From: Brachyspira hampsonii
GTDB lineage: Bacteria; Spirochaetota; Brachyspiria; Brachyspirales; Brachyspiraceae
Reading direction: 5' to 3'
Assembly: GCF_002214805.1 (NCBI RefSeq)
Contig: NZ_CP019914.1
Location: forward strand, 2,542,001 to 2,606,000
Length of the DNA: 64,000 nucleotides
Position numbers and translations under genes: made by a program. Below are positions 21,307 to 28,263 of this stretch, in pieces (position 1 is the stretch's first letter; every line of letters starts with the position of its first letter). Below the pieces are notes generated by a model. That model made no database searches and had not been told where the DNA came from. It saw only the letters and a program-made list of their open reading frames with translations.

Positions 21307-23256
21307 ATGTTAAAAAAATTAAATTTAAATATAAAAATTAGTCTAGTAATATTAGTACCTTTAATAATAATGCTTATAATATCAAATATTGTTAATATAG
21401 TATATGTGAGAAAATCAACTATAAAACTTATATATAGCATACTTGATAATAAAGCTAAATATGAAGTTGTTATGCTAAAGTCTTTTATGTATAGAGATTC
21501 AGAATATATAACAGGTTTAGCAAATACTTTATCTGGATTTTATAATGATAATATTTTAGATAGAAATTTTTATGAAAGAGTATCATATAATTTTTTGAAT
21601 AATTTGCCTAAAAGAGTAAACGGATTATTAATAGCATTTGAGCCTAATATAATCGGAAATGATAATGATTATGCAAACTCTGAGAAATATGGTTCTTCAG
21701 GCGGACGATTTAATTATTATGTATCAAGAGATAATGATATTATTAAAGATAATTATTTTGATAATAAAATATTTCAGGAAAAGTATTATACAGAAACTTT
21801 AAGAAGCGGAGAAATATATATTACAGATGTATATAGTTCTCCTTTGCATAATAATGCTATGATTTATACTTGGGCTGTACCTATAAAATCAGGAAATAGA
21901 ACTATAGGTGTAATTTGTGTAGATGTTCTTATAGACACCATTTATGGTATATTAGAGAATATTCAATTATTCAATGGTACAACAACAACGCTTTTTGATA
22001 ATTCAGGATTGATTGTTTATGATAGTGATAAAGAAGAATATATATTTAAAGAACTTCATGATATATATCCTTATTACAGAGTTCATAATGTATTTGAAAA
22101 TATTGTAAATGGAAAGAGCGTATTATTTCAAAATTTCAGCGGTACATTGCAAAAATATTATACCTATTCATTTACTCCTATGGAAATAATAAAAAATAAG
22201 TATTGGGGATTAAAGGTAACAGCCCCTAATGATGAAGTATTAAAAGAAAGTAATACTATAAGAAATGTTATGATTGCAATATCTTTAATGATAATTATTA
22301 TAAGTTCTATAATTGTGCCTATAATAATTAAAACAAAAGTATCTAATTTGATAAAGGTTTTAGCTAATGATATTACTTTTATGTCTCAAGGAGATTTAAC
22401 TGTTGAGATACCTAAAAGACTTTATAATAGAACTGATGAATGGGGAGATATAGCAAGAGGCTGGGATAAAGCTATGAACAATTTTAATAATATAATAAAT
22501 ACAGTTAAGCATTCAGCAGAACAAGTTTCCACAGCTGCTAATGAGGTATTAATAGGTAATAATGATTTATCTCAAAGAACAGAAACTCAAGCCTCCAGCT
22601 TGGAAGAAACAGCAGAATCTATGAATGAAATGGCTAGTGCTATAAAAGAATCATCAGAAAGTGTTGCCCAAAGTGCTTCTATGGTATCAGATGCGAAACA
22701 GTCTTTAAATAAAGCTGGTGATATAGTATCAGACAGTGTGAATAAAATGAATGATGTATATGAAGCTAGTGCCAAAATAATGGATATTACTAAACTTATA
22801 GAAGGAATAGCCTTTCAAACTAATATACTTGCACTTAATGCTTCGGTAGAGGCTGCTAGAGCTGGTGAACAGGGACGAGGATTTGCGGTTGTAGCTAGCG
22901 AAGTAAGGAATTTAGCACAGAATACTCAGGAATCTGTAAAAAATATTACTTCATTAATTACAGATAATAATGATAAAATAAAATTAGCTGCTGCAAGTGT
23001 TCAGCAGTCTCAGGATATGTTTAATGAAATACTAGAAAAAATGGATAGAGCTTCCTCTATAATGGATAAAATTAATGCTGCTGTACAGGAACAGGAAAAT
23101 GGAATAAATCAGGTAAATATTGAAATTAGTAATATAGATTCTTCTATACAAAAGAATGCTGCTTTAGTGTCTGAAGCTGCTTCTGCTTCTGAATCTCTTC
23201 TCAGTGAGGCAAATGATTTGATTAAAGCTATAGAATATTTTAAATTAAAATCTTAA
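21307..23256 (+). CDS. Methyl-accepting chemotaxis protein (Cache sensor, HAMP)
   Basis: A 649-residue chemoreceptor. TM1 spans about 13-33, followed by a periplasmic Cache-type sensor of about 280 residues ([34 protein letters not shown]). TM2 lies near 318-342, with a HAMP domain to about 395. The cytoplasmic coiled-coil signalling domain follows, with its hairpin tip around 500-530 ([20 protein letters not shown], then [12 protein letters not shown]). The ligand is unknown; Cache domains bind small organic ligands. It signals through CheW and CheA. A decayed partial copy of its signalling region lies 235 bases downstream. Confidence 0.95.
22657..22860 (+). repeat. Direct repeat, copy 1 (within the intact chemoreceptor gene)
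   Basis: These 204 bases, encoding [11 protein letters not shown] through VEAAR, recur at 23608-23811 with roughly a dozen to fifteen base differences and no gaps seen by eye. Confidence 0.85.
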
Positions 23257-23490: not shown

Positions 23491-23817
23491 ATGTTTAAAA
23501 GAGTAAGTCTTCAGGTAAAAATTAGTTTAATTATATTAATACTATTATTGATAATGATTCCAATTATAATTATAAATAAAGTTGTTAAGACGGTAAAAAA
23601 TGCTGCTGAAAGTGTTGCCCAAAGTGCTTCTATGGTTTCAGATGCTAAGGAATCTTTGAATAAAGTCGGAGCTATAGTATCAGACAGTGTGAATAAAATG
23701 AATGATGTATATGAAGCTAGTGCCAAAATAATGGATATTACTAAACTTATATAAGGAATAGCTTTTCAAACTAATATACTTGCACTTAATGCTTTGGTAG
23801 AGGCTGCTAGTTTATAA
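23491..23817 (+). pseudogene. Decayed chemoreceptor fragment
   Basis: The frame starts like a chemoreceptor (MFKRVSLQVKISLIILI, a first transmembrane helix like that of the intact gene upstream). It then jumps after about 36 residues straight into the signalling domain ([17 protein letters not shown]), so sensor, TM2 and HAMP are missing. After DITKLI the Glu codon of the intact gene is replaced by TAA (23752-23754). The homology continues ([18 protein letters not shown]) and ends at a second stop near 23817. It therefore combines an internal deletion, a nonsense mutation and a 3' truncation. It was probably a tandem paralogue of the gene at 21307. Confidence 0.88.
23608..23811 (+). repeat. 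Direct repeat, copy 2 (within the chemoreceptor pseudogene)
   Basis: Partner of 22657-22860, 951 bases away. The high identity suggests recent duplication or gene conversion, and the pair could support recombination. Confidence 0.85.
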
Positions 23818-23844: not shown

Positions 23845-24819
23845 TTACTGATTAATATTTTTTATTTTTTTCTGCATTGATATAGTGTTTCGCTCCCAAA
23901 ATACATTATCAGTATAGCCTTGTATTTCTTTATTCTGTTCGGCAAGCTCTATTCTTTTTTCTGCCCAAGCACAATATGTTTTATGCTGTTCTATCCCTGA
24001 ATAATTTCTGCCTAGCTTCTTGGCTACTACCGAAGTAGTGCCGCTTCCCAAAAAAGGATCAAATATAAAATCATTGGCATTTGAGCTGGCTAATATCAAT
24101 TTAGCAATTAACTTTTCGGGCTTTTGTGTAGGGTGAGCAGTGTTCTCAGACATAGACCAATAAGGAACTGATATATCATCCCAAAAATTAGACGGACATG
24201 TATCTCTGAAATTTCCATCTTCTGTTTCTATCCAATCTTTGGGTTTCCCTTCTATTCGGTATGGAGCTATTACTTTTCTTCTTATCTTGACATCATCTAC
24301 ATTGAAAGTATATTTATTGGATAGGGTAGCAAACCAAATATCTTCCATTCCATTCTTCCAATTATTTTTTGCCCCTCTGCCTTTCTCTCTCTGCCAAGTG
24401 ATTCTGTTTTGTATATTGAAATATTTATCTAAAACATTTCCTATTATAAGACTAGATTTCCAATCGCAGCATACATATATTGTGGCATTTTCTTTTAATA
24501 TTGGAATAATGCTTTCTACCCATAGATGAGTGTATTTTTCATAGCTTAAATTATCTATATCTTTAAATTTAAAACCATGATAATTTTTGGATATATTATA
24601 AGGCGGATCAACTATCATTAAATCAGCTATATTTTTTTCTATTTTTTTTAATACATCAAAAGTATTTCCATTTATAGTTTTGTTTATAATATCTTCTCTT
24701 TTATATTCTGTTATATTTTCATTATCTATAATACATTTATTAAAGTAGAATTTTCCTTCTTCAGTATTTATATCAAAATCAATAGTTTTATTCTTAACTG
24801 ATTTAACTTTTGTATTCAT
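23845..24819 (-). CDS. Solitary site-specific DNA (adenine-N6) methyltransferase
   Basis: A 324-residue DNA methyltransferase. The catalytic motif DPPY (71-74, IVDPPYNISKNYHG) comes before the SAM-binding motif FDPFLGSGTTSV (about 255). This is the beta-class order typical of N6-adenine (or N4-cytosine) enzymes; DPPY favours adenine. The middle holds a target-recognition region (ITWQREKGRGAKNNWKNG) and AHPTQKP. No restriction endonuclease gene lies next to it, so it is an orphan methylase that may mark the genome for regulation or protection. It starts 22 bases after guaA on the same strand. Recognition sequence unknown. The N-terminal ~40 residues are unusual for the family. Confidence 0.88.
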   Translation of the reverse strand: MNTKVKSVKNKTIDFDINTEEGKFYFNKCIIDNENITEYKREDIINKTINGNTFDVLKKIEKNIADLMIVDPPYNISKNYHGFKFKDIDNLSYEKYTHLWVESIIPILKENATIYVCCDWKSSLIIGNVLDKYFNIQNRITWQREKGRGAKNNWKNGMEDIWFATLSNKYTFNVDDVKIRRKVIAPYRIEGKPKDWIETEDGNFRDTCPSNFWDDISVPYWSMSENTAHPTQKPEKLIAKLILASSNANDFIFDPFLGSGTTSVVAKKLGRNYSGIEQHKTYCAWAEKRIELAEQNKEIQGYTDNVFWERNTISMQKKIKNINQ

Positions 24820-26385: not shown

Positions 26386-26603
26386 ATATTTCCTCTTTTA
26401 TGAAATGCGATTAATTGAATAATATTATACCAAAATAATAAAATTTCAATTAATAGTTATCATAATATAAAATATACATTAAAATTTTTTACTATGCACG
26501 GTAAATTGATTTTTTGTATAATTAAATTGCATTACTTATATTATTTATTTTGTATAAAAGGTTAATCGTGCGTTAATTAGCACATCAAGTTTAAAAAAAT
26601 ATA

Positions 26604-26688
26604 GGGTGGGTGTTCTAATTCATATTAAAGCAATAAATATAAATAAAATTATAAATCCAAAATTAATCATTAAATATAAAGGGTGGGG
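26604..26688 (+). repeat. G-ended ~84 bp repeat, copy 1 (plus orientation)
   Basis: An 85-base element that begins GGGTGGGTGTT and ends AAAGGGTGGGG. The interior is almost pure A/T and carries AATAAAATTATAAATCC, matching copy 2's AATAGAATTAAAAATTC. With copy 2, in opposite orientation 32 bases away, it forms an inverted pair: TATAAAGGGTGGGG (26675-26688) can pair with CCCCGCCCTTTATA (26721-26734). No coding potential was seen. Confidence 0.65.
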
Positions 26689-26720
26689 TATTAGAATAAA
26701 GTTAAAAATCTATTTACATT

Positions 26721-26803
26721 CCCCGCCCTTTATACTTTATTGTTTAATTTGAATTTTTAATTCTATTTATATCTGATACCTATATATAAAAACATGCCCG
26801 CCC
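26721..26803 (-). repeat. G-ended ~84 bp repeat, copy 2 (minus orientation)
   Basis: An 83-base element, read on the minus strand from GGGCGGGCATG to AAAGGGCGGGG. It lies between copy 1 and the 3' end of the outer-membrane-protein pseudogene. Flanks also match copy 3: ACTT before the first G run and WATGTAAATA after the last, extending the similarity to about 104 bases (26704-26807). Confidence 0.75.
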
Positions 26804-26850
26804 AAGTTTTACTTAAATTTATAGTTTTATATTATTATCTTTTTAATATA

Positions 26851-27720
26851 TTAATTTCCAAATTTCATTCCTAAATTAAAAGCTATTTCAAAACTAGAAA
26901 AACCGTATTTTTTGATATTATAATTGTCATAGTAACCAACAGCACCGCCTCCAACACTTGGATATCCGCTGTATATTTTTTGATAATCTTCATAAGACAT
27001 ATTAGCAATATCATAGAATATATCAAAATTATATATTAAACTTACACCAAATAAAAAAGCTATTTTCTCATTAAAATAAAAATAATCATCTATCTGAAGT
27101 TTTATATATGGTATAAACGGATAATCAAATTTTCTTTTTATATCTTTGAATGAATATTTTTCTGCCAAATGACTTTTATAATTTTCATCAGCATTATTAT
27201 TCATTGTATTATAATATCCACCAGATAATGCTATTTTCATTCCAAAGCCTATACCTATATTAAGCTCCATTTTACCTTCATAGTTTGGATTAATATTTTT
27301 TAGCAAAGATGTAAGATTAACAGCATATTTGGGCATTAATCCTATATTTAATGTATGAAAAACTAAATTCTGAGCCGCACTATATATTTGATTGTTTCAA
27401 TAATTATTATCAGTTTGGGCTTTAAATCTAGAAGCGAAATCAAGTCTTGAATAGCCTATTTCAGTTAATATACTTATAGCATTATTTTCATTTATATTGA
27501 ATCTATACCCAAAATTTCCAGTAACCCCAATATTAAAACTCATATCTGATTTAGTTGTATCTATATAAATATTTCTGACAAAATTCCATTTAGGATCCTC
27601 TATATTAGGAAATGTAGAAGTAATGCCTATTGGTACATATATACTAGCTTCAAATTATGTAAATGCCGATTTAGTAAATAGTGAAATAAATATTAAAACT
27701 GATAACACTATTTTTTGCAT
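26851..27720 (-). pseudogene. Outer-membrane beta-barrel protein, broken by two nonsense codons
   Basis: From the ATG at 27720 the frame reads a signal peptide (MQKIVLSVLIFISLFTKSAF). It then meets TAA at 27657-27655, exactly where Gln would follow the cleavage site, and reopens (FEASIYVPIGITSTFPNIE). It meets TGA at 27399-27397 and continues to the normal end at 26851 (FEIAFNLGMKFGN). Both stops lie in one frame 290 codons long, so the change is by point mutation (for example CAA to TAA, TGG to TGA). The alternating strands and repeated Tyr/Asn-rich turns fit a small porin-like barrel. The piece from MPKYAVNL (27336) remains open but lacks a signal peptide. Repeat copies flank it on both sides. 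Confidence 0.85.
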
Positions 27721-28263
27721 GCAAACTCATTTAATTTAGTTTTATTAAAAATGAATGTTTTATCTTATATTTAAAAACTTAAAAAATATATACTATAAAT
27801 TTATAGGTTTATCAATTTTTTATTTCTCACTGTAAAAATAACCCAAAAGTGCGGGTATGAAATTATTTCAAAACCATACTGATTTTATATTTAAGGTAAA
27901 TTATAAATTTTAGTTAAAATATAGCATTTAATATTTTATTCTTTGTGTTAATAAAAGAATTATGTCAATAGATATAAAAATATATTTACATACCCCGCCC
28001 TTTAAAGTTTTTTATTTTTTTAGAATATAGAATTTTTAATTACTTTATAGTCTAATTAGAAAAAGCATGCCCGCCCAAGTGCCCATTAATTAAACAATAT
28101 TATGTTAATTAAAATATGTTAATTCTCTTTTATTACTTTTTTATTTGGTTTTCGTTTTTTATTCTGCATGTTTGGTATGGGAAAGCTATATTACAAAAAT
28201 AGTATAAATCTTAAAAAATAATTTAATAAAATAAATTTTGATATATAATTATTATAGATTTAA
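27721..28263. other. Non-coding stretch with repeat copy 3
   Basis: 543 bases without a gene. The only clear content is repeat copy 3 (27993-28076). Near 27850-27862 the sequence AAGTGCGGGTATG resembles one end of that repeat but no second end follows, so it may be a degenerate copy. The rest is simple A/T-rich sequence. Confidence 0.6.
27993..28076 (-). repeat. G-ended ~84 bp repeat, copy 3 (minus orientation)
   Basis: An 84-base element, read on the minus strand from GGGCGGGCATG to AAAGGGCGGGG. The ends are identical to copy 2 over 11 bases each, and the A/T core shares AATTAAAAATTC. The similarity extends to ACTT outside the first end and to TATGTAAATATA outside the second (27976-28080). 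It sits upstream of the outer-membrane pseudogene, so copies 2 and 3 bracket that pseudogene as direct repeats. Confidence 0.75.

What the first reader, a model, noticed from the sequence alone, without database searches (positions are those of the whole stretch)
26604..28080. A three-copy 83-85 bp repeat with G-rich ends, unexplained
Copies at 26604-26688 (plus), 26721-26803 (minus) and 27993-28076 (minus) keep nearly the same length, GGGYGGGY at one end and AAAGGGYGGGG at the other, with an A/T core. Copies 1 and 2 form an inverted pair able to make a 14-bp stem. Copies 2 and 3 bracket a barrel-protein pseudogene. The G runs stand out sharply in such AT-rich DNA. It may be a MITE-like element, a small-RNA or protein-binding repeat, or scars of recombination.
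Basis: seen in the sequence. Interest (0 to 1): 0.62.

Follow-up and report, generated by a model that had tools for sequence, protein, structure and literature searches.

The report
Brachyspira fixed-spacing GC-box repeat arrays
The three repeats belong to a large, apparently undescribed family of between-gene DNA arrays found only in Brachyspira bacteria, in which short G/C-rich boxes keep their letters and spacing to within about a base while the AT-rich DNA between them drifts almost freely, which suggests that something in the cell reads the boxes.

Summary
The 83-85 bp repeat is one module ("B") of an array; it occurs 67 times in this genome by exact pattern and 0 times in the reversed control. 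The full unit is about 345 bp: B (GGGYGGG..GGGYGGGG), an inverted B-like module, and module A (CGCACG..CGTGCG). Six boxes sit at fixed spacing (SD about 1 bp, 2.4 bp for one interval), while the AT-rich cores of different copies are hardly more alike than shuffled DNA (63% against 56%). Arrays lie almost only between genes, just downstream of stop codons, and are enriched between convergent genes. They occur in 23 of 26 Brachyspira genomes and in no other Spirochaetota sampled, apart from one lone chance-like hit. At the window's guaA site the array persists across the genus; its box bases differ 2.3% between species against 23.5% for the cores. So the boxes are held by selection in place. I found no covariation for an RNA structure, no RAYT-type transposase in the genus and no insertion footprint. 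Best reading: a Brachyspira-specific, BIME/BOX-like set of DNA-protein binding arrays (nucleoid or supercoiling related). The binding factor is unknown; the function is inferred.

The parts
26495..26572 (-). Module A of the array next to guaA: a box (decayed TGCACG, 26495-26500) and t box (CGTGCG, 26567-26572)
   Evidence: Chain scan of the window; the same module is in the orthologous place in other species
26604..26688 (+). Copy 1: B-like module of T type (GGGTGGG 26604-26610, GGGTGGGG 26681-26688)
26689..26720 (.). Linker between the facing b2 boxes of copies 1 and 2
26721..26803 (-). Copy 2: B module of C type (GGGCGGG..GGGCGGGG on the minus strand)
27993..28076 (-). Copy 3: lone B module of C type on the far side of the pseudogene
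26851..27720 (-). Neighbour, not part of the array: pseudogene with two in-frame stops, lying between two arrays
   Evidence: its 3' end also precedes the array in L111
24841..26385 (-). Neighbour: guaA (GMP synthase), used to find the orthologous site
   Evidence: Pfam GATase and GMP_synt_C; search in the genus

Best explanation
The repeats are modules of a Brachyspira-specific extragenic array. Six short GC boxes (GGGYGGG-type four times, CGCACG-type twice) stand at fixed distances (about 78, 43, 78, 37, 74 and 36 bp; period about 345 bp), in truncated or tandem form, mostly near gene 3' ends. The array most likely works as double-stranded DNA: one or a few host proteins bind the boxes and need their exact spacing, forming a complex that organises or insulates DNA or manages supercoiling between genes, in a role like the E. 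coli BIMEs that bind gyrase. Copy number changes by recombination between arrays. SHOWN: family, anatomy, spacing, intergenic 3'-end placement, constraint on boxes in place, clade restriction, stepwise copy-number change. INFERRED: that a protein binds, which one, and the topological or nucleoid role.
For: Box spacing SD 0.7-1.0 bp (2.4 bp for b2-c2) although cores of paralogous copies are 63% alike against 56% shuffled. At the guaA site, over 14 species chosen by guaA and not by boxes, box bases differ 2.3% pairwise, cores 23.5%; 0 of 100000 random core-column sets are as invariant. Boxes change less than cores between G000 and G004 (2.9% against 9.8%, P about 2e-6). Leftover boxes decay where the array is lost (L305, L310; L108). 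4 of 409 boxes in ORFs, median 54 bp after a stop codon, enriched between convergent genes (25 of 68 against 43 of 326, P about 1e-5). No strand preference and no within-copy covariation, which points to DNA rather than RNA. Spacing and order are the same in other Brachyspira genomes.
Against: No binding protein is known, and no expression or binding data exist here. The boxes can pair (b with c, a with t) and fold with low energy. Placement after stop codons and between convergent genes is also expected of tolerated parasites. The G000/G004 figure is biased because arrays were chosen by their boxes in G000. No 10.5-bp AA/TT periodicity was seen, so simple DNA bending is not supported. Some species lost the guaA array, so it is not essential there.
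Confidence: 0.47

Rival explanations
1. A selfish, non-autonomous repeat (MITE/REPIN-like) whose boxes are the recognition sites of a mobilising enzyme; it accumulates where insertion is tolerated, downstream of genes.
For: Many dispersed copies; differences in copy number and in presence between species; enrichment between convergent genes, which was read as a sign of parasitic repeats in pneumococcus (PMC3049150).
Against: Same site kept across the genus with boxes constrained in place while cores diverge; no target duplication or clean insertion found; array ends vary; no Y1 transposase in the genus; paralogous copies are very diverged, so no recent burst.
Confidence: 0.27
2. A transcribed element: hairpins b/c and a/t act in mRNA 3' ends (stability, termination) or as small RNAs.
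For: Boxes are complementary and folding energy is low (mean z about -3.8 and -4.9 for the two senses of B-C, about -2 for A); placement just after stop codons.
Against: No same-copy excess of complementarity and no convincing covarying helix; facing b2/c2 middle bases are mostly C with A or T with G, not Watson-Crick; no strand preference; ordinary terminator-like hairpins precede some arrays (and L118); no Rfam family.
Confidence: 0.12
3. A recombination platform: arrays are mainly sites at which genes are gained, lost and exchanged (cassette-like).
For: Indels ending in arrays, 6 of 12 listed; core exchange at guaA in G004; gene present or absent between arrays at guaA.
Against: 31% of intergenic positions are as close to an array, so the excess is small; homologous recombination between repeats explains it without selection; precise spacing is not explained.
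Confidence: 0.08
4. G-quadruplex element: two GGGYGGG boxes on one strand form a quadruplex with a long loop.
For: Gs nearly invariant while the middle base varies mainly between C and T.
Against: Module A has no G runs yet sits on the same lattice with similar constraint; a central loop of about 70 nt is unfavourable (own knowledge).
Confidence: 0.06

Closest known systems
BIMEs / REP elements of enterobacteria (PMC2817692, PMC6379681)
   Same: Extragenic, composite, regularly spaced units in opposed orientation, more than 100 per genome; E. coli BIMEs bind gyrase and have been proposed to organise the chromosome.
   Different: REP units are short palindromes of 20-40 bp tied to RAYT transposases; here the modules are about 80 bp with GC boxes only at their ends, and no Y1 transposase was found in the genus.
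BOX elements of Streptococcus pneumoniae (PMC3049150)
   Same: Composite repeat made of different modules in a set order with variable module number, intergenic, enriched between convergent genes.
   Different: BOX modules are recognised by their sequence along their length and have a predicted RNA fold; here only the end boxes and their spacing are conserved. No sequence comparison with BOX was run.
MITEs such as Correia elements (PMC3049150 background)
   Same: Short non-coding dispersed repeats with inverted parts.
   Different: No fixed element ends, no target duplication seen, fixed spacing with drifting interior.
Integron attC sites (own knowledge)
   Same: Conserved ends, variable interior, similar size, between genes.
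   Different: attC ends are mutually complementary; module B ends are direct repeats. No integrase was looked for.

Membership tests
REP/BIME mobilised by RAYT | Extragenic, more than 100 dispersed copies, units in opposed orientation with regular spacing | tested here: met
   67 exact B modules and 118 A modules, arrays intergenic with fixed order
REP/BIME mobilised by RAYT | RAYT (Y1 transposase) gene in genomes with the repeat | tested here: not met
   PF01797: 0 of 26 Brachyspira genomes, while the control rings in 5 known genomes
REP/BIME mobilised by RAYT | Unit is a short palindrome of 20-40 bp | tested here: not met
   Modules are about 80 bp; B ends are direct repeats
REP/BIME mobilised by RAYT | Bound by gyrase or other proteins | not testable with these tools
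   No binding data for Brachyspira available here
BOX-type composite repeat | Different modules in set order with variable number | tested here: met
   Cyclic order B, inverted B, A with 1-9 modules
BOX-type composite repeat | Conserved RNA fold if transcribed | tested here: inconclusive
   Low folding energy but no covariation
BOX-type composite repeat | Sequence homology to pneumococcal boxA/B/C | not tested
   No comparison was run
MITE | Defined ends with terminal inverted repeats and target-site duplication; clean empty sites | tested here: inconclusive
   Array ends vary; one site compared closely shows remnants in G004 and G005 and no duplication
Structured RNA family | Match to a known family | tested here: not met
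   No Rfam match in the window
Structured RNA family | Compensatory base changes | tested here: not met

The most novel reading that the evidence does not exclude
A clade-specific chromosome-organising site system: a protein or complex not yet described reads a six-box lattice with about one-base precision in spacing at well over 100 places per genome, much as MatP/matS or ParB/parS do with short motifs, but through spaced multi-box arrays.
Probability: 0.28. Interest if true: 0.85.

Novelty: new variant of a known kind. Interest (0 to 1): 0.62.

Why it matters
Intergenic repeats are usually found and judged by sequence similarity. Here the conserved things are six short boxes and their spacing while the rest is nearly random, so repeat finders that rely on similarity would tend to miss it. 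The constraint in place across a genus implies that the arrays do work for the cell. It gives a directly testable DNA-protein system in gut spirochaetes, with orthologous loci that have lost parts of the array serving as natural mutants, and it accounts for the three unexplained repeats in the window.

Tried and rejected
Coding origin: only 4 of 409 boxes lie in ORFs. RNA structure: no same-copy complementarity or convincing covariation. RAYT-driven REP: no Y1 transposase. Known RNA family: none. Phage origin: no match in viral contigs. First model of strictly alternating identical units: replaced, because facing b2/c2 middle bases are mostly unlike (C with A or T with G; 41 of 47 in G000, 56 of 67 in other genomes) and many arrays read mainly in one direction (43 of 71 at least 80% consistent, 28 mixed); avoidance of perfect GC palindromes may add to this. 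Replication-terminus link: copies are clustered (45 of 67 at 1.2-2.0 Mb), but GC skew did not place origin and terminus clearly, so no claim. DNA bending: no 10.5-bp periodicity. Breakpoint hotspot: suggestive only. The reversed-sequence control is not valid because the box pattern is close to reversal-symmetric; the shuffle control gave 0 arrays. A third locus for the box-constraint test proved a gain/loss locus, and a second keeps the array in only some species, so the multi-species constraint rests on one locus (guaA) plus the two-species comparison. Literature searches for Brachyspira with repeat, palindrome or G-quadruplex terms found no description; most subscription journals are not held.

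Full report
WHAT WAS CHECKED. The three copies are at the stated coordinates with lengths 85, 83 and 84 bp. The window lies at 2542001-2606000 of a 3.19-Mb single-contig genome. The exact pattern GGGYGGGY-N50-80-AARGGGYGGGG occurs 67 times there and 0 times in the reversed control.

THE REAL UNIT. Profiles anchored on the copies showed G/C-rich positions far outside the 85 bp. Reading the flanks revealed two more modules. Module A is CGCACG-N-CGTGCG; 118 such pairs occur genome-wide, control 0. The third module is an inverted B-like one (CCCRCCC..CCCRCCC). The order is fixed and cyclic, with mean distances b1-b2 77.5 bp, b2-c2 43.0, c2-c1 77.7, c1-a 37.1, a-t 73.9 and t-b1 36.3, about 345 bp in all; the SD is 0.7-1.0 bp, or 2.4 bp for b2-c2. 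In 400 kb (1.6-2.0 Mb) a chain scan found 45 arrays of one to nine modules, most of them starting and ending at module boundaries; a shuffled sequence gave none. B cores of different copies are 63% alike against 56% when shuffled. So the letters between boxes are nearly random, yet the distance is kept.

DIRECTION. At facing b2/c2 boxes the middle bases are C with A or T with G in 41 of 47 G000 cases (P about 3e-9) and in 56 of 67 cases from other genomes. These two are the same arrangement seen from either strand, so the unit has a direction: a C-type B, an inverted T-type module, then A. Many longer arrays read mainly one way, with exceptions. In the window, copy 2 (C type), copy 1 (T type) and module A form one unit read on the minus strand, ending next to guaA. 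Copy 3 is a lone B module on the other side of the pseudogene.

WHERE. Of 74 arrays in 800 kb, one centre and 4 of 409 boxes fall in ORFs. 25 of 68 arrays lie between convergent genes, against 43 of 326 gaps in general, and 7 between divergent ones. The median distance is 54 bp from a stop codon and 182 bp from a start codon. The first module met after a stop codon can be A, B or inverted B (52, 28 and 42 cases). 45 of 67 exact copies lie in 1.2-2.0 Mb and none beyond 2.57 Mb.

WHO HAS IT. 23 of 26 Brachyspira genomes have the B pattern and the A-b1 pattern; the three without (G001, G003, G019) have neither. Among 367 other Spirochaetota genomes one lone A-b1 match occurred, which is about what chance allows.

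SELECTION IN PLACE. Upstream of guaA the array sits at the same spot in most array-bearing species. Over 14 species other than the window's own, box bases differ 2.3% pairwise, cores 23.5% and the flank toward guaA 15.4%. The free middle base differs 29%, only between A and G. None of 100000 random sets of core columns was as invariant. This set was chosen by guaA and not by the boxes. Between G000 and G004 ten arrays give 2.9% in boxes and 9.8% in cores; these arrays were chosen by boxes in G000, so that figure is biased low. Where most of an array has been lost, leftover boxes decay (L108; L305 and L310), although a lone t box is intact in L105 and L106.

HOW IT CHANGES. Arrays differ between G000 and G004 by whole modules and by steps of about 345 bp. 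In G004 the inverted module by guaA has a quite different core between the same boxes, a sign of exchange between arrays. Some gene-sized indels end in arrays, but the excess over other intergenic positions is small. The end of the barrel gene precedes the array in L111; in G004 the gene is absent and a B module of the copy-3 type is joined to the guaA array. That fits loss of the gene by recombination between arrays (inference).

MECHANISM. RNA structure fails the tests that could have supported it, although the boxes give low folding energies. A transposon is not excluded but has no footprint and no RAYT. What remains best supported is recognition of duplex DNA boxes at set spacing. By analogy with BIMEs, which bind gyrase in E. 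coli (PMC6379681), and from the placement downstream of genes and between convergent genes where positive supercoils gather, I favour a role in DNA topology or nucleoid organisation. That last step is inference; no factor is known.

KNOWN OR NEW. It resembles BIMEs and BOX elements in being a modular extragenic repeat, but it fails the RAYT and short-palindrome features of REP/BIME. I found no description in the papers held, including the B. murdochii genome paper. I rate it a new variant of a known kind.

Noticed in passing
L105 and L106 (upstream of guaA in G007 and G009); also L307, L308, L312: A second, GC-rich repeat-like sequence (pieces such as GGGCAAAGCCCC and GTTCTTTTTGCGGCGGGAAAAAGAAC) interrupts or flanks arrays in some species; it looks like another dispersed Brachyspira repeat family.
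   Followed up: no
b2-c2 spacing in G000 arrays: The b2-c2 distance falls in two classes, 39-43 bp and 47-49 bp, about half a helical turn apart; no explanation.
   Followed up: no
window 23491-23754: A short ORF repeats part of the chemoreceptor gene at 21307-23256, apparently a truncated duplicate; no Pfam match on its own.
   Followed up: no
window 23845-24819: A DNA methyltransferase gene (N6_N4_Mtase) lies directly downstream of guaA with no restriction gene seen beside it in the ORF list.
   Followed up: no
window 26851-27720: Pseudogene of an unknown secreted or barrel-like protein with two in-frame stops; the same gene end is next to the array in L111 (G017).
   Followed up: partly
G000 genome: Array density is very uneven: 45 of 67 exact B modules in 1.2-2.0 Mb, none from 2.57 Mb to the end, roughly following low coding density.
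   Followed up: partly
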